Positions 16,627 through 24,411 of a stretch of DNA of 25,970 nt are shown here, in pieces (positions within the stretch are counted from its first letter, which is position 1; each line of letters begins with the position of its first letter). The position numbers and the translations under genes are program-made. The notes beneath the pieces were generated by a model, which had not been told where the DNA came from, made no database searches, and saw only the letters and a list, made by a program, of their open reading frames with translations. Source of the DNA: a virus; IMG/VR virus record IMGVR_UViG_3300030101_004079, positions 15,699 through 41,668 of that record; one strand, written 5' to 3'.

Positions 16627-19600
16627 ATGGATAGGTTAGAACAACTTTATAATCTTTATGTAGATAAAGGTATATTAACATCAAAAACAACTTTAGACCA
16701 GTTTAAAGAGTCTGATGTTGACATACAAAGTAAACTTTACGATTTAGGAAAAAATAAAGGTTTGTTCAATACAACAGACCTTAATACTTTTCAGTCAGCT
16801 TGGGGTGATGTAAAAAAAAAAGATTCTTCAGCATTTCAAAACTCAATTTCCCAAAAGACTACAGAGGATTCTGTATTGGAATCGGAGCCTTCAACTTCTT
16901 CTTCGGAGTACATAGAGTCTCTAAATGAAAGCATAAGAAAAAGACGACTATCTTCAGAGCAAGGTCAAGACGCATTAGATTTAGATAGAGAATCAAAAAG
17001 ACCTTTTTACGAAGGTCAAGGTGTTGATATAAATAAGGTTCTTGATGCTGAGTTTGTTAAAAGTCAAGTTGCAGAAAAAAAAGAACAAGAGCTTGAACAA
17101 GAAAAAGATCTTGGATTTTTTAGTAAGCTTTACAAAAGAATAACAGACACCTCAGATCTAGAGGAAGATTACTTTACCACAGACGAAGATGTAGCTGATG
17201 AATTTTTAGCTAAAAACTCAGACAAAATATTTGAGGCTGAAAAGCAATTTCATAACGCACAAATAAAAGACGTTATAGATAACATTGCTCCAGAATCTAG
17301 AATGGAGCAGATAGAGGCTAGAGGTATTGATTTATCTTATATGCCTGTAGATAACATAAAGGTTAACAACGAAAGTGTAAGCGTTAACGAACTTCAAAAA
17401 AACTTATTTAACACAGACTTTGTAAACGATGTTATTGATGGTAAAACTACTGTTACTATTGATAATCCTGATAATGACGAAGGACTAAAAACTCTTCAAG
17501 ATTTACTTGAAAGACAAGTTGAGTCTGGTGGTTTTATAGGTGACTGGGCAGAGAGTTTTGCTGCTGGTGCTTTAGATTTGTTAGTAGCGGGTCCTCTTGA
17601 AATAGCTGAAGGGTTATTAATAGGTGGTGCTACTAGTGATTATGAGCAAATAATGTACAACACCAGAGGTGGTAAGTTTGCAAGTAAAGTTAAAAAGACT
17701 GCAGATAAAATAAGAGAAAGAACTAGATTGTATCAGGAAGATGGTATGACAAGCTCAATACTAAAGGGTAACTTCCTTGATGCATTCAAACAAGGAGGCA
17801 GTGCTATAGCAGAGACAATGCCTTTAATATTTAGTATGTACGCATCTAGTCCTACTTTAGCTACAAAGTTTGGACCAAAGGCTGCTCAAAATATATCTTT
17901 AGGGGCTATAGGTTTGTCAACTGCTGGGGTTCAATCTTTAAGCTTGAAAGAGCAAAGAATGAAGGGTGAAATAGATGTTAACAATTTTGCATTATATGCT
18001 AACGCTGCTTTGACTGGTGCTGCTGAAGCTGTCTTTGAAAAAACCACGTTAGATTTAGTTAATGATGCCAGAGCACTAATCGGTAGAGGAAAATCCAAAC
18101 AAAGTGCTAAAGAAATAGCAGATAACATTACAGATGGTTTCTTTGCTAAAGGTATACAAGAGGGTGGTGCTGAATTTAAAACTGAGGTATCTAACACCAT
18201 AACAAATATGATAACTGGTGTAGATAAAAACCCAGAAGATGTTTTAGTTAGGCTATCTGACTCTTTTCTTATTGGTTTTGCTATGGGTGGTGGTATACAT
18301 AGTGCAGGATATTTAGGTAAAGCCTTTACAGACGCAGATTATAAAAAGCTTAACGACAATATAGTTGTTAACTTTATAATGGAGGATAAGTCCACTAAAC
18401 AAATGAGTAGAGCTGAAGCTTTAAGATTTGTTAAGACTGAAGGTGTGGGTCAGCAGATTAGAGATGGTAAGATAAAGATGGATGCTTCTATGAATGCTGA
18501 AGCTCAGTCTTTACTAGATGAACTTGTATTTGGATTCTACGCACCTGATGCTGCTGAGGCTAGAGGATTAATGCAGGAGAAAGAGAAGGTTGTTAATGAT
18601 ATGTTAAACGTCTTAGATTCAAAGAAAAAGTCAGACATATCTATAGATGAAATATCAGCTTTAAATGATGCTGTTAGTCAGATGGAATCTGAGGGTAAAA
18701 AGTCTAAATACAACGTTACAGACAGAACTAAGAGTATAAGAGAAAGACTTGGAGCTGTTTTAAATGATAAAGGTATTCAGGTTATAGACCCTATGACTAG
18801 TCAAGATACTAGTGGATCTAATATAACTGAATCTGTAGAAGCCACAGAAATAAAGACTCAAGAGCAATACGAAAGTGTTAAAAGTCAAATAGATAAAGGA
18901 AAAAGAAAACCTGTAATAGTAACATCACAAGATAAGTCTGGCATTGTATTTAATAACAATAAAGCTGAGACCTCTAATATAACTACTGCTAAGTTTAATA
19001 ACGTATCTGATGCTAGAAACGCATTAAAAGATTACGAAGCTAAAATGTCTGAGGGTGTAAATAAAGAGGACTTATTCAAAGCTAATAATAAATTATTTAT
19101 AAACACATCTAAAGATAATCTTGACCAGATACCTCAAGATGTTATTAATAGTAATGATTATCATATATTAACTTCAGATAGAGGAGGCGTAACGGAACAA
19201 GAGAAAGCATCTAGAATGGAAAGACTTAAGTCTATGCTAAATGAGGCTGGTGCAACTTACTATACTGTTCAAGGTGTTTACAATAGTGTTGCAGAAGAAA
19301 GTCTTTTAGTAACAGGTCTTAGTGACGCTTCAGCTTTAAATATAGGCAATCAGTTTCAACAAGAGTCTATATTCTCTTCTAAGACGGGTTTCATGTATAA
19401 TGATGGTAGAATTGAACCTTTAGACCCTAAGAAAAATACCAAAGGTCCTGACGCTAGAAAGCAAGAAGGTCTAACTATATTAAATATAAACGGTAGAAAA
19501 ACATCAATATCTTTAGGTACAGATAAGTCGAAAACAAGTTATGGTAAAAACTTTAACTCAGAAAACGTACATAAACTTGATCCGAATAATCCTAAGTATG

Positions 19601-22600
19601 ATTCAGACTTGTTTGAAGGTGTTACTGAAGCAAGAAAAGAAGCTTTAGGTTTTGCACTTAAGTTACTTAACTCAATAGGAAACCTTAATGTTACTGTTAT
19701 TAAGAATAGTAACGCAATGGCTGAACAATTAAAGTCTATAGGTCAAGATCCATCTAAGAGTAGATCATCTTTCTTTAGAGGTGCTGACAAGACTATATAT
19801 GTAAACCTTGAAACTGTTCGTGGAAATACTTTATTTCATGAGATCATTCACCCTATGGTTGATTTCATTAAGAAGACTGATGCTGATTTATACAAAAGAA
19901 TAGAGTCTGAAGTTAAGGAAAGTAACATGAAAAGACGTGTTATAAAGGATGGTCGTAGGATGAAGGGTTCTTATCTTGACTGGGCTAAAGCAAACTATGA
20001 AGGTCTTTCTGAGGAGGCACTAATAGAAGAGGCTTTTGCTGAGATGATGGGTGACGCTGCCTATGGTCACTTTGTAAATAAACAGTCTAAGCTAACAAAG
20101 ATTAGAGAAGTTATAAGAGCTATACTAGAGAGACTAAATATAGTATCTCCAATAGAAAATGTTGAGTCTATAGATTTACAACAAATGTCTTTAAAAGATT
20201 TGGCTGATAACTTATCTGGTGCTTTAGTAAATGGTAGAAAGATTACTGTTGGTGGCGTGGAGTTTGAGGTTGGAGATGTAGATAAATTGTCTGAGATTAG
20301 GAAAAAAAATCCAACATTACTTAGTGAACCTAACCCAGAGACTGCAGACATATCTAAGTCTTATCTTTCAGATAAAGCGACAGATCTTGGAATAGATCAG
20401 TACTCTGAACCAAGATTTGTTAATCGTTTAAATGAAGATAATTCTAAAATGATTGCAGACGCTTACGATAGTTTAGTTGATGATCCTAAAAACCCAGAGG
20501 TTATAAAAGCCTACAAAGCTTTAGCTGATGAGACACTAAGCCAGTATCAATCTATAATAGATAAAGGTTACAAGTTAGAAATATGGAAAGGTAAGGGTGA
20601 GCCTTACGCTAACAGCACTGAAATGATTCAGGATGTTAGAGATAATAAACATCTATATATATTTGGGACAGAAGCTGGTTTTGGAGAGGGTGCTATCACG
20701 CCTGATCAAAGAAAAGAAAATGTTATGCTCTCTAGAACAGAATATAAAGATGTTAATGGAGATCCTCTTGTTGTGAATGATATATTTAGATTTGTTCACG
20801 ACTTCTTTGGCCACACAGAGCTTGGTAATGGATTTGGTCCTATCGGTGAAGAAAATGCTTGGCTTAATCATTCTAGAATGTATAGCCCTGAAGCTAGAAA
20901 AGCAATGACTACTGAGACTAGGGGTCAAAACTCTTGGGTAAATTACAATAAGAACCTAAGAAGAAAGGATGGTACTATACCTAAAAAAGGTGAAAAAGGT
21001 TACGTGCCTTTATCTAAAAGACCTTTTGCTGATCAAAAGATGGGTATACTTCCTGATAACATTGTAAACCCTGTAGAGGTTAAGGCTGAAGATATAAGTG
21101 ACATTAGAATGCAGGCTTCTGAAGTAGCAGAAGAATATGTAAATGACTTAGATCAGAAAATTAAATCTACGAGAAACTCTAAAGAATTACAAAGACTATT
21201 AGATATTAAATCTGGTTTAGCTTTTAGGTCTGGAGATTTAACAACTAAGGCTGAAAGTAAATTTAAAATGAGACAAGGTAGAAGCACTGGTCATTTTGGA
21301 ACAGGTTTTTATTTTTTCAGCGACCTCAATAGAGCTAAGGCTTATGATGACAGAAGAGTTTCTGTTATTAACTTAAACAATTATAATTTAGCTCCTGGCA
21401 CTATTAAATTGCACGATGCTCTTAAGTCTATAAATAATAATTCCTTTGATAGAGATGTTAATAAGTATGAGATATTTGGAAGAGAGATAAAAGAAGTAGA
21501 ATCTATTACTGGTGTTAATTTAACTTCAGAACAAAGAAGTCAATTTGTTAATGATATTAACTTAAAGTTAAACGATACAAATAATATTGATAGTCCTTCG
21601 ACTCTTATAATGAAATCTTTAGGTTTTGAAGGTATAGATTCTAGATATAATAAAGATACTGACAACTCAACCTACGGTACTGTAATTTATGATATAAAAT
21701 CTGATCAAGTAGGTGATATTAGAATGCAAGCTCCTCAAGAAGAAACAGAGAATGTAGTATACACTTCAGGATTAGGTAATTTAATATTTGATGTATCTGA
21801 GGCTGTTATTAAATTAGACTATAATCTTGGAGAATGGGTTCAAAATATTCCTGGATATACTACCTTAACAGGTGAGCAAGAAATAGACGCTAGGCTATCT
21901 ACACTACTATTAAAACCTAAAGGGACTCACACCAATAAAGAAATAAAAGAGTTGATGACTCTTAGAAAGGGTGATGTAGCTTTAGAGCTTCACAGGGCTA
22001 ACGAGATAATGAAAAGGTTTGCTGATATTAATAAAGAATATCAGATGTCTGACGCTGAACTGAATGATCTACTTGGTGACGTAAATAAAATAAAAGCCAT
22101 GGAGTCTGATAAAAGCGACATGAAGGGTATACTAATGGAGATGAGAAGACATATTGACTCACTTAGTAGAACACTTATAGACGAAGGATTAATAAGAGGT
22201 CAAGCATCTTTTGCTGTAGAAGCTAATGGAGGCTTTTACATAACTAGATCTTACAAGCAGTTTGAAAGCAAAAACTGGAAACAAACAGATACTGAAATAC
22301 AACAAAGAGCTAAAGACTTTTTGTATCAGGAAGTTAAAAAAGAAAATCCTGATTTACCAGAATCTGAAATACAATCTAAAGTAACTGACGCTTACAACGA
22401 ACTCATTACAAAAGGAGATTTTGCTAGGTTCTCATCTGGTTCTTTTTCTTTGGATGGTTTAAACAGAGTTACATCTATATTTAAACAAAGAAAAGTTATT
22501 CCTCAAGAGATAAGAGATTTATGGGGTGAGATAGATAATCCTGTGTTTAACTACAACAACACAATATCTAAAATAGCAAGAACAGTGGCTGCTGAAAGAA

Positions 22601-24411
22601 TGTATAAAGATCTTTTAGATATTGGTCAAGATAAATTTATATTTGATCAAACAGTTCCTGGTATAGCAGAGAATATACTAGAGGGTAAAAAGTTTGGGTT
22701 ACTAGAGGGTAAGCGTGTAGATAACGAAATGTTTAACGTTCTAAACAGATTTGAAGAGAAGGTGAGCTACCCTTTATTGCTTACTATTTATATGGAATCT
22801 ATACTTCTTAACAAGAAAGCTAAAACAGTTTGGAACTTACCTACTCACTTTATTAATTTGATAGGTAACACTTCTTTTGCTTTAATGAATGGTCACGTTA
22901 GCTTTAAAGACTCTAAGTACTTTGCTAAAGAGGCTATAAAGTCTGTAAGTAATATGACTGATCCTCAAGTGAAAGAGTTTAGAGAGAAGCTAATAAAGCT
23001 TAGAGTTATAGATAACTCAGCAACACTTAGTGAGATACAATCTATAACTGAGCAGGTTAAAAATAGTAACTTTAGTATATCTGAGTATGTTAAAAATAAG
23101 GACTTTACAGATAAAGGAGCTATAGGTTATTTAAGTAAGATAGGTAAAAAACTTGACAACTGGGCTACAGATGCTTATCAAGCTGAGGATAACGTTTGGA
23201 AAGCTTACGGTTTCTTGTCTGAAAAAGCTAGATACTTAGAAGCTGGATTTTCTGTTGAAGATGCTGAGGCTACTGCAGCTAAGAATGTAAGAAACTTATA
23301 CCCAAACTATAACGAGATACCTAGAATAATAAGAACAATAGGTAGATCTCCTGTGGTTGGTTCTTTTGTTGCTTTCCAGGCTGAGTCTGTTCGTAACACT
23401 AAAAATGCAATACTGCTTGGACTTGAAGAAATATCTAGTGACAATAATGTTTTAAGAAAGTCTGGAGTAGCAAGGCTATCTGGTACTCTAGCTACTTTTA
23501 CTCTTCTTCAAAGCATGCAGTTGTATACAGCTAAGTTCTTCATGGAGTCTTTCTTTGGAGAGGATGAGGATGACGAGCAAGTTGAAACTAGAAAGATAAG
23601 AACTATTTTACCAAGCTGGGACGCTAAAGGATTATTATCCTATACTGAAAAAGGTGAGTTAGAGTCTAGATATTCTAAAGGTCAAAAATACAAGGACAGA
23701 TATATAGATTATATAAACTTCTCCAGAGTATCTGGTGTGGGTTATATTAAGGACTTATTTAGATTAGCCTTTACAGATATTAAAACAGAACCTGGAAAGG
23801 AAAGCTTTATGAGAATTGTAGAGGCTATCTACGAGCCGTTTTTAAGTGAAGAGATGACTTTAACTTTATTTCAAGAAGCTTATAACAATAAGGGCGGAAA
23901 AGTATATAATGAAACTGATGACAACCTAACGAAGCTTTTTAAAAGTATAGAATTTATAGGTAAAGGAATTGCTCCAGGAACACTTAGAACTGGTGTTAGA
24001 ATAGGTGAATCAGTATTTGAAGAGGACTCTGAACTTGTTCCTCTTTATGAGGTATTAGCTATATTTGGCTTAAGAGTAAATAGAATAAATGTAAACAAGA
24101 GTGTTTACTTTAGATCTAGATTTGCTAAACAAGAGCTTACTGATATAGTAGGTAAAGATGTTATGAAGGATGAGAGTAAGTTGAGAGGATTCATAACCAA
24201 AGGATCTGAAGATTATGACTCAAGAGCAGATGAGGTATTAAATAAGTTTGCTGATATAATTAGTGCTGCTAGATTAAACAATATAGCAGGTGAAGACATA
24301 AGACAAATACTAAGAAAGGCTGGAATGAGTAATCTTTTAATATCTATAGCTGAGAAAAGAGGTATTGATAGATACCACCAAGACAACATAAACATATTAA
24401 AAGACGAATAA
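16627..24411 (+). CDS. Giant polyvalent ejection protein: zincin, HDxxGH and ART-like domains
   Basis: A 2594-residue protein with several domains in order. Residues 7-26 and 37-55: an imperfect tandem repeat (LYxLxxxKG...TxLxxF). ~300-570: hydrophobic Gly/Ala-rich stretches able to insert in membranes. ~843-930: resembles DUF3293 (starts 'YHILTSDRGG'). ~1006-1165: zinc metallopeptidase motif HEIIH (1071-1075) with a downstream helix EEAFAEMMGD (1135-1143). ~1258-1490: conserved domain with HDFFGH (1391-1396), GEENAW and TTETRGQNSW (1428-1437). ~1535-1697: ADP-ribosyltransferase-like pattern GHFGTGFYFFSD with a late GFEGID...YGTVIYDIKSDQV element. ~1710-2594: helical region resembling large polyvalent-protein-associated domains (WNLPTHFINLIGN; VAFQAESVRNTKN). 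DIRMQA occurs at both inter-domain borders. This fits the 'polyvalent protein' class described by Aravind and colleagues. Likely injected with DNA to breach the envelope and modify host proteins. Confidence 0.8.
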   Translation: MDRLEQLYNLYVDKGILTSKTTLDQFKESDVDIQSKLYDLGKNKGLFNTTDLNTFQSAWGDVKKKDSSAFQNSISQKTTEDSVLESEPSTSSSEYIESLNESIRKRRLSSEQGQDALDLDRESKRPFYEGQGVDINKVLDAEFVKSQVAEKKEQELEQEKDLGFFSKLYKRITDTSDLEEDYFTTDEDVADEFLAKNSDKIFEAEKQFHNAQIKDVIDNIAPESRMEQIEARGIDLSYMPVDNIKVNNESVSVNELQKNLFNTDFVNDVIDGKTTVTIDNPDNDEGLKTLQDLLERQVESGGFIGDWAESFAAGALDLLVAGPLEIAEGLLIGGATSDYEQIMYNTRGGKFASKVKKTADKIRERTRLYQEDGMTSSILKGNFLDAFKQGGSAIAETMPLIFSMYASSPTLATKFGPKAAQNISLGAIGLSTAGVQSLSLKEQRMKGEIDVNNFALYANAALTGAAEAVFEKTTLDLVNDARALIGRGKSKQSAKEIADNITDGFFAKGIQEGGAEFKTEVSNTITNMITGVDKNPEDVLVRLSDSFLIGFAMGGGIHSAGYLGKAFTDADYKKLNDNIVVNFIMEDKSTKQMSRAEALRFVKTEGVGQQIRDGKIKMDASMNAEAQSLLDELVFGFYAPDAAEARGLMQEKEKVVNDMLNVLDSKKKSDISIDEISALNDAVSQMESEGKKSKYNVTDRTKSIRERLGAVLNDKGIQVIDPMTSQDTSGSNITESVEATEIKTQEQYESVKSQIDKGKRKPVIVTSQDKSGIVFNNNKAETSNITTAKFNNVSDARNALKDYEAKMSEGVNKEDLFKANNKLFINTSKDNLDQIPQDVINSNDYHILTSDRGGVTEQEKASRMERLKSMLNEAGATYYTVQGVYNSVAEESLLVTGLSDASALNIGNQFQQESIFSSKTGFMYNDGRIEPLDPKKNTKGPDARKQEGLTILNINGRKTSISLGTDKSKTSYGKNFNSENVHKLDPNNPKYDSDLFEGVTEARKEALGFALKLLNSIGNLNVTVIKNSNAMAEQLKSIGQDPSKSRSSFFRGADKTIYVNLETVRGNTLFHEIIHPMVDFIKKTDADLYKRIESEVKESNMKRRVIKDGRRMKGSYLDWAKANYEGLSEEALIEEAFAEMMGDAAYGHFVNKQSKLTKIREVIRAILERLNIVSPIENVESIDLQQMSLKDLADNLSGALVNGRKITVGGVEFEVGDVDKLSEIRKKNPTLLSEPNPETADISKSYLSDKATDLGIDQYSEPRFVNRLNEDNSKMIADAYDSLVDDPKNPEVIKAYKALADETLSQYQSIIDKGYKLEIWKGKGEPYANSTEMIQDVRDNKHLYIFGTEAGFGEGAITPDQRKENVMLSRTEYKDVNGDPLVVNDIFRFVHDFFGHTELGNGFGPIGEENAWLNHSRMYSPEARKAMTTETRGQNSWVNYNKNLRRKDGTIPKKGEKGYVPLSKRPFADQKMGILPDNIVNPVEVKAEDISDIRMQASEVAEEYVNDLDQKIKSTRNSKELQRLLDIKSGLAFRSGDLTTKAESKFKMRQGRSTGHFGTGFYFFSDLNRAKAYDDRRVSVINLNNYNLAPGTIKLHDALKSINNNSFDRDVNKYEIFGREIKEVESITGVNLTSEQRSQFVNDINLKLNDTNNIDSPSTLIMKSLGFEGIDSRYNKDTDNSTYGTVIYDIKSDQVGDIRMQAPQEETENVVYTSGLGNLIFDVSEAVIKLDYNLGEWVQNIPGYTTLTGEQEIDARLSTLLLKPKGTHTNKEIKELMTLRKGDVALELHRANEIMKRFADINKEYQMSDAELNDLLGDVNKIKAMESDKSDMKGILMEMRRHIDSLSRTLIDEGLIRGQASFAVEANGGFYITRSYKQFESKNWKQTDTEIQQRAKDFLYQEVKKENPDLPESEIQSKVTDAYNELITKGDFARFSSGSFSLDGLNRVTSIFKQRKVIPQEIRDLWGEIDNPVFNYNNTISKIARTVAAERMYKDLLDIGQDKFIFDQTVPGIAENILEGKKFGLLEGKRVDNEMFNVLNRFEEKVSYPLLLTIYMESILLNKKAKTVWNLPTHFINLIGNTSFALMNGHVSFKDSKYFAKEAIKSVSNMTDPQVKEFREKLIKLRVIDNSATLSEIQSITEQVKNSNFSISEYVKNKDFTDKGAIGYLSKIGKKLDNWATDAYQAEDNVWKAYGFLSEKARYLEAGFSVEDAEATAAKNVRNLYPNYNEIPRIIRTIGRSPVVGSFVAFQAESVRNTKNAILLGLEEISSDNNVLRKSGVARLSGTLATFTLLQSMQLYTAKFFMESFFGEDEDDEQVETRKIRTILPSWDAKGLLSYTEKGELESRYSKGQKYKDRYIDYINFSRVSGVGYIKDLFRLAFTDIKTEPGKESFMRIVEAIYEPFLSEEMTLTLFQEAYNNKGGKVYNETDDNLTKLFKSIEFIGKGIAPGTLRTGVRIGESVFEEDSELVPLYEVLAIFGLRVNRINVNKSVYFRSRFAKQELTDIVGKDVMKDESKLRGFITKGSEDYDSRADEVLNKFADIISAARLNNIAGEDIRQILRKAGMSNLLISIAEKRGIDRYHQDNINILKDE
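16645..16791 (+). repeat. N-terminal tandem peptide repeat of the 2594-aa protein
   Basis: Residues 7-26 (LYNLYVDKGILTSKTTLDQF) and 37-55 (LYDLGKNKGLFNTTDLNTF) align as two copies of LYxLxxxKGxxxxTxLxxF with a one-residue gap. The repeat is clear at protein level but diverged in DNA. It could be a docking or packaging tag; that is inference. Confidence 0.6.

What the first reader, a model, noticed from the sequence alone, without database searches (positions are those of the whole stretch)
21229..21717. ADP-ribosyltransferase-like domain delivered with the virion
Residues ~1535-1697 have GHFGTGFYFFSDLNRAKAYDD and, about 100 residues on, GFEGIDSRY...TYGTVIYDIKSDQV, the layout of phage ART domains (a GxGxYF strand with following helix, and a C-terminal 'GxDGi...vvxxxxxI' unit). 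T4 Alt shows that phages can inject ARTs to modify host proteins; a homologous function here is inference.
Basis: partly seen in the sequence, partly recalled or inferred. Interest (0 to 1): 0.65.

Follow-up and report, generated by a model that had tools for sequence, protein, structure and literature searches.

The report
Swappable ADP-ribosylation module in phage protein
A giant phage protein that is probably carried inside the virus particle holds a distant ADP-ribosyltransferase-like module, and closely related phages gain, lose or replace this module at short repeated seams, as if swapping tools in a kit injected into bacteria.

Summary
The motif is real and lies where reported, in a 2594-aa protein (window 16627-24411). 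The domain starts a few residues earlier than stated, at about aa 1531. No family library, cultured phage or PDB sequence matches it above a curated cut-off, but it belongs to a family of at least 40 members in uncultured-virus contigs. A 37-row alignment gives a confident model (pLDDT 88, pTM 0.85) whose nearest viral matches are 'PolyVal ADP-ribosyltransferases'; solved-structure matches are weak (PARPs, AcrIF11). Pfam ART-PolyVal, searched over the whole record, has one sub-threshold match, exactly here. So the ART reading is supported.

The active site is unusual. Strand 1 has His in about half the family and Arg in one well-supported clade that includes the window. The strand-2 Tyr is kept. 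Gly replaces the expected strand-5 acid; an invariant Asp sits just upstream. T4 Alt is only an analogy: its R-S-E residues are absent.

Unreported but striking: the domain is a cassette. Against one relative its flanks are about 50% identical (protein), the cassette 93%. A sister phage 91-95% identical in the flanks lacks it at the IRMQ seam; others carry a methyltransferase instead. Virion delivery rests on homology to a mass-spectrometry-detected virion protein. Catalysis is inferred.

The parts
16627..24411 (+). 2594-aa giant multi-domain protein that contains the domain
   Evidence: PHROG 22602 'virion structural protein' at aa 1821-2345 and PHROG 3170 at aa 1267-1444
21217..21711 (+). 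ART-like domain, aa 1531-1695 (from strand 1 to just past strand 5)
   Evidence: family alignment A3, AF2 model pLDDT 88.4, BFVD matches, sub-threshold Pfam ART-PolyVal at 21244-21417
21226..21228 (+). R1534, strand-1 active-site position (His in the other half of the family)
21280..21315 (+). RSTGHFGTGFYF, aa 1552-1563: strand 2 with Y1562; near-invariant R1552, T1554, H1556
   Evidence: T/H/G/Y partly imposed by the search patterns, R1552 not
21661..21678 (+). D1679 (invariant, in the loop before strand 5) to G1684 (position where an acid is expected in PARP-like ARTs)
21100..21117 (+). left seam DIRMQA, aa 1492-1497
   Evidence: ART-less sister L009 reads DIKMQ at its single seam
21715..21732 (+). 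right seam DIRMQA, aa 1697-1702
20425..20958 (+). neighbouring cassette, aa 1267-1444 (PHROG 3170), present in ART-less relatives too
19837..19851 (+). HEIIH at aa 1071-1075 with a downstream glutamate-containing helix: zincin-like metallopeptidase signature
   Evidence: fits the description of zincin-like MPTases in PMC5512222; no Pfam match
19192..19371 (+). DUF3293, aa 856-915 (also in the Flavobacterium elemo phage structural protein)
22087..23661 (+). conserved C-terminal region, aa 1821-2345, homologous to MS/MS-detected virion protein gp123 of Cellulophaga phage phi18:3
7668..13865 (+). upstream virion structural gene (PHROG 14478), part of the same structural run

Best explanation
The span encodes a divergent member of the ADP-ribosyltransferase superfamily, closest in fold to the ARTs of phage polyvalent proteins and PARPs. 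It is one exchangeable cassette in a giant structural-cum-cargo protein of a phage of probably Bacteroidota hosts. The giant protein is packaged in the virion and its cassettes enter the cell with the DNA. There the domain binds NAD+ (strand-1 Arg and strand-2 Tyr lining the pocket, an invariant Asp in the loop before strand 5 standing in for the missing acid) and ADP-ribosylates a host or defence protein early in infection. Cassettes are gained, lost or replaced between related phages by recombination at short IR[MF]Q seams. Shown here: motif, family, predicted fold, seams, cassette gain/loss, purifying selection. Inferred: packaging of this protein (by homology), injection, NAD+ use, catalysis and target.
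For: Family and conservation. Fold: confident model; BFVD rows 1, 3, 6, 8, 9 and 10 are PolyVal-ART, large-polyvalent or PARP-labelled; PARP and 6kyf rows in VIA-align; sub-threshold matches of family members to Pfam DUF3990, ART-PolyVal and PARP and to NCBIfam AcrIF11; single ART-PolyVal match in the record at this place. Cassette: DNA 95.8% over 642 nt against 65-78% for most matching flank pieces, abrupt change at the seams, protein 93% vs about 50%, clean absence in L009, methyltransferase PF13489 instead in L010/L011, 21 of 21 seam motifs inside the cassette region and none in 22,137 aa outside. Virion: MS/MS note on phi18:3 gp123, virion PHROGs around. Polyvalent class: LPD23 in the relative L003/L020, LPD39 in family member L111.
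Against: No library calls the domain an ART above its cut-off. Foldseek against PDB gives nothing significant (best E about 1, mostly calmodulins) and the VIA Z-scores (at most 4.9) are in the range the tool calls common. The canonical strand-5 acid is Gly in all 36 members with that region, and strand-1 His is Arg here, so loss of catalysis is possible. Sequence comparison with ART-PolyVal covers mainly the strand 1-3 half (a set selected by the same motif); with a set mostly not chosen by that motif it drops to 35% probability. No mass spectrometry of this phage exists.
Confidence: 0.62

Rival explanations
1. A catalytically dead ART-like domain kept as a binding module (pseudo-enzyme): it holds NAD+, ADP-ribose or a protein target without transfer, or acts as a decoy.
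For: Gly instead of the strand-5 acid in all members and Arg instead of His in the window clade.
Against: Near-invariance of R1552, H1556, Y1562 and D1679 across a very diverse family and purifying selection between close copies. AcrIF11 is an active ART with noncanonical H-F-H-D residues whose Asp lies in a loop (PMC12421852).
Confidence: 0.23
2. An NAD+ hydrolase, or an ART acting on nucleic acid or a small molecule rather than on protein.
For: The ART superfamily includes DNA-, RNA- and phosphate-acting members and NADases (PMC9503650); nothing here fixes the acceptor.
Against: The polyvalent-protein ARTs nearest in fold are predicted protein modifiers (PMC5512222).
Confidence: 0.2
3. A purely structural module of the virion or ejection apparatus that only resembles the ART fold; host modification plays no part.
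For: The protein is embedded among virion structural genes and the top VIA-align row is a cyanophage A4 pre-ejectosome chain (Z 4.9, rmsd 5.9).
Against: The cassette is missing or replaced in close sister phages, so it is dispensable for the virion; the family also occurs as short free-standing genes.
Confidence: 0.1
4. A T4 Alt-type (R-S-E) ART.
For: Arg in strand 1 is shared.
Against: Strand 2 carries Tyr, not Ser, and there is no Glu at the strand-5 position; no R-S-E family among the matches listed (25 of 30 families shown).
Confidence: 0.03

Closest known systems
ART domains of phage polyvalent proteins (Pfam ART-PolyVal PF18760; Tox-ART-HYD2 clade of Iyer et al. 2017, PMC5512222)
   Same: Predicted fold, FGxGxYF strand 2 with Tyr, G-[FY]-[DE]-G-[IV] unit, occurrence inside giant multi-domain phage proteins; best structural matches in BFVD.
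   Different: Below the Pfam cut-off; Arg at the strand-1 His position in the window clade; Gly where the strand-5 acid sits; a helical middle with an LHDxLxxIN helix; own RSTGHFGTG and DN..YG[ST]V signatures.
PARP catalytic domains
   Same: Weak structural alignment over 95-106 residues (PARP1, PARP2, tankyrase, PARP14); GxYF strand.
   Different: Z only 2.2-3.5; no catalytic Glu; 9-14% identity.
AcrIF11 anti-CRISPR ADP-ribosyltransferase
   Same: Weak structural row (6kyf) and a sub-threshold NCBIfam match of one family member over the C-terminal half; precedent for an Asp in a loop and for a noncanonical residue set.
   Different: AcrIF11 is a small free protein that targets Csy1; nothing shows such a target here.
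Phage T4 Alt
   Same: The idea of an ART packaged in the head and injected.
   Different: R-S-E clade; different residues; separate protein, not a cassette.
Virion structural protein gp123 of Cellulophaga phage phi18:3 and the giant structural protein of Flavobacterium elemo phages
   Same: Homologous C-terminal (phi18:3, about 27% identity) or mid-N-terminal (elemo, about 23%) regions and a similar place at the end of a structural gene run.
   Different: Neither carries this ART family.

Membership tests
ADP-ribosyltransferase superfamily | Split beta-sheet ART fold | tested here: inconclusive
   Confident model whose top BFVD matches are PolyVal ARTs; PDB matches weak. Favours ART.
ADP-ribosyltransferase superfamily | NAD+ binding and ADP-ribose transfer | not testable with these tools
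   Needs biochemistry.
ART-PolyVal / Tox-ART-HYD2 | Score over Pfam PF18760 cut-off (31.2 bits) | tested here: not met
   12.6 bits, E 0.0056 for the record, single match, at the domain.
ART-PolyVal / Tox-ART-HYD2 | His in strand 1 | tested here: not met
   Arg in the window and its clade; His in 19 other members.
ART-PolyVal / Tox-ART-HYD2 | Tyr in strand 2 | tested here: met
   Y1562, 37 of 37; the search pattern asked for it in most rows.
ART-PolyVal / Tox-ART-HYD2 | Asp in strand 5 | tested here: inconclusive
   Gly at the expected place; invariant D1679 five residues before, D1689 in 22 of 36.
T4 Alt / VIP2 (R-S-E) | Ser in strand 2 and Glu in strand 5 | tested here: not met
   Tyr and Gly.
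Polyvalent proteins | Several unrelated domains fused in one giant phage protein, often with zincin-like peptidase and LPDs | tested here: met
   DUF3293, HEIIH, PHROG 3170 cassette, ART-like cassette and virion-type C-terminus in one ORF; LPD23 in relatives.
Polyvalent proteins | Delivered into the host at infection | not testable with these tools
   Only a homolog's presence in virions is documented.

The most novel reading that the evidence does not exclude
The family is an active ART with a rewired catalytic set (one His-to-Arg switch in strand 1, no strand-5 acid, a loop Asp instead), and the IR[MF]Q seams do double duty: they are recombination anchors for swapping injected effectors and cleavage sites at which the protein's own zincin-like domain releases each effector.
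Probability: 0.2. Interest if true: 0.75.

Novelty: new variant of a known kind. Interest (0 to 1): 0.52.

Why it matters
Injected phage effectors act before any phage gene is expressed, but few are characterised. If right, this adds an ART family that is absent from the family libraries searched, with a clean evolutionary His-to-Arg test case for ART catalysis. It also shows near-identical phages that differ by a single injected-effector cassette: natural with/without pairs for finding what a virion-borne enzyme does and which defence it meets. The seam motif gives a testable idea of how such proteins are built and perhaps cut.

Tried and rejected
Structure from the three close copies only: pLDDT 49, unusable. 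Pfam, NCBIfam, PHROGs, PADLOC and PDB sequence searches: no match to the window domain above a cut-off. Apparent ART-like matches in the upstream structural ORF of relatives were inspected and rejected as chance alignments in a structural protein. tblastn of the window domain and four divergent members against cultured phages, and of one member against plasmids, found nothing. DUF3990 and PARP Pfam models do not match the window's own record. The profile comparison is biased because both sets were picked by the same motif; the less biased repeat is weak. A first dN/dS run was out of frame and is replaced. Absence of an ART row in Foldseek-PDB is not taken as evidence against the fold. Attempts to line up AcrIF11's catalytic Asp with D1679 by sequence failed; the equivalence is inference.

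Full report
WHERE IT IS. The window is part of a 45,656-base uncultured virus record. The motif lies in one 2594-aa ORF at 16627-24411. The reported residues are there.

IS IT A REAL DOMAIN FAMILY. The domain alone matches nothing in Pfam, NCBIfam, PHROGs or PDB sequences at a useful level and nothing in 50,697 phage records. Two viral-contig scans found only two close copies (L002/L019 and L003/L020). Pattern scans of viral contigs for G[HNYD]FGxGFYF and TGHFGxGxYF followed by hmmsearch gave 41 domains of one family: Y[HR]xGDL ... GR[SG]TGHFG[TS]GxYF ... YNL ... LHDxLKxIN ... STxxMKxLG[FY]xG[VI][DN] ... DNxxYG[ST]V[IV]Y. Two more sit in genome contigs, labelled a proteobacterial and a Pacearchaeota MAG. 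Most members lie in giant ORFs; some are free-standing genes of about 275-430 aa in large viral contigs. Four divergent members tested also have no match in cultured phages.

FOLD. With three sequences the model failed. With 37 it reached pLDDT 88.4 and pTM 0.85. Against BFVD the best match is a 'PolyVal ADP-Ribosyltransferase' (E 3.7e-3, prob 0.94), and five further rows of the top ten are large-polyvalent, PolyVal-ART, ART-PolyVal-like or PARP-labelled. Foldseek against PDB has no significant match. VIA-align over Foldseek's own candidates lists a cyanophage A4 pre-ejectosome chain (Z 4.9), PARP2 and PARP1 (3.5), 6kyf (2.8), tankyrase (2.5) and PARP14 (2.2) among calmodulin-like rows. Those Z values alone prove nothing, but they point the same way. 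6kyf is AcrIF11 (PMC12421852). Sub-threshold sequence matches of family members fall on DUF3990, ART-PolyVal and PARP in Pfam and on AcrIF11 in NCBIfam, mixed with unrelated chance rows. Searching the whole record with Pfam ART-PolyVal gives a single match, at window 21244-21417 (E 0.0056, under the cut-off). DUF3990 and PARP do not match the record. I put the ART-like fold at about 0.85.

ACTIVE SITE. Polyvalent ARTs are described as His (strand 1), Tyr (strand 2), Asp (strand 5) (PMC5512222). Here strand 1 is His in 19, Arg in 17 and Thr in 1 member. In the tree (36 rows) the Arg sequences form one side of a well-supported branch (99/94), so a single switch explains them. Strand 2 Tyr is universal, though largely required by the search pattern; R1552, D1679 and G1684, which no pattern required, are also near-universal. 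The place of the usual strand-5 acid is Gly; D1679 lies five residues before. The equivalence of G1684 with the PARP catalytic Glu is read from the strand boundaries of the model and the motif, not from a superposition. AcrIF11 shows that an ART can work with a noncanonical H-F-H-D set and an Asp in a loop. Catalysis is therefore plausible but not shown, and a pseudo-enzyme is the main rival.

CASSETTE. Relatives found through the C-terminal region share flanks with the window but not the middle. L019: flanks about 50% protein identity, ART cassette 93%; DNA 95.8% over 642 nt against 65-78% in most flank pieces, with abrupt change at aa 1492-1501 and about 1700. L009: 91-95% identical in the flanks, no ART, single seam DIKMQ. 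L012 and L021: no ART, single seam. L010 and L011: about 83-91% identical flanks, a methyltransferase (PF13489, over cut-off in L010) in the slot. L020: six seams with several cassettes, one carrying LPD23. The seam motif [IL]R[MF]Q[AVT] occurs 21 times in the proteins with clear anchors, always inside the cassette region (6,088 aa) and never outside (22,137 aa); 0.065 expected in shuffles. The DNA under the seams is also alike (ATTAGAATGCAGGCTCCT and variants). Recombination at these seams is the simplest explanation.

DELIVERY. The C-terminal region is homologous to gp123 of Cellulophaga phage phi18:3, annotated as structural from MS/MS proteomics, and part of the N-terminal half to a structural protein of Flavobacterium elemo phages. 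Three window genes upstream hit virion-structural PHROGs, and one structural gene has relatives only in Flavobacterium and Cellulophaga phages, which suggests a Bacteroidota host. The ORF carries HEIIH plus a downstream glutamate-containing helix, a zincin-like signature (no Pfam hit). Iyer et al. propose that such peptidases process polyvalent proteins. That the seams are cut is my inference; a term search of that paper's main text found no mention of linkers.

VERDICT. The ART reading is supported as remote kinship; Alt kinship is not. Delivery is likely by homology. The additions are an ART family absent from the libraries searched, a strand-1 His-to-Arg switch, and the exchangeable-cassette architecture. 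ART domains in giant injected phage proteins are a known kind, so this is a new variant of it.

Noticed in passing
L010:9167-10009 (+), in the giant ORF, and the same slot in L011: In near-identical sister phages the slot holds a class I methyltransferase (PF13489 over cut-off in L010), which could serve anti-restriction or modification.
   Followed up: partly
window 20425-20958 (aa 1267-1444): The neighbouring cassette (PHROG 3170, HDFFGH...HSRMY motif) has relatives in 200 phage records, mostly mycobacteriophages; one Microcystis phage annotates it as 'lysin' and Rhodococcus phage E3 as a structural protein. Function unknown.
   Followed up: partly
L126, L131, L132, L127 and other pattern-found polyvalent proteins (L064, L073, L074, L075): Unrelated polyvalent proteins seem to have their own short repeated seams between modules (PDIRYS, APRQQ, QTRQQ); seams with Arg and Gln/Ser may be a general feature of such proteins.
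   Followed up: no
L057 (two copies), L075 (two copies), L073 with a canonical ART-PolyVal at L128: Some phages carry tandem copies of this ART family, or one copy together with a canonical ART-PolyVal, in one protein.
   Followed up: no
window 19837-19851: HEIIH zincin-like signature conserved in relatives but not recognised by Pfam.
   Followed up: partly
PDB 9k3a chain B (cyanophage A4 pre-ejectosome), structural row for window 21178-21717: Best-scoring structural row for the domain; whether that ejection protein contains an ART-like domain was not checked (paper not held).
   Followed up: no
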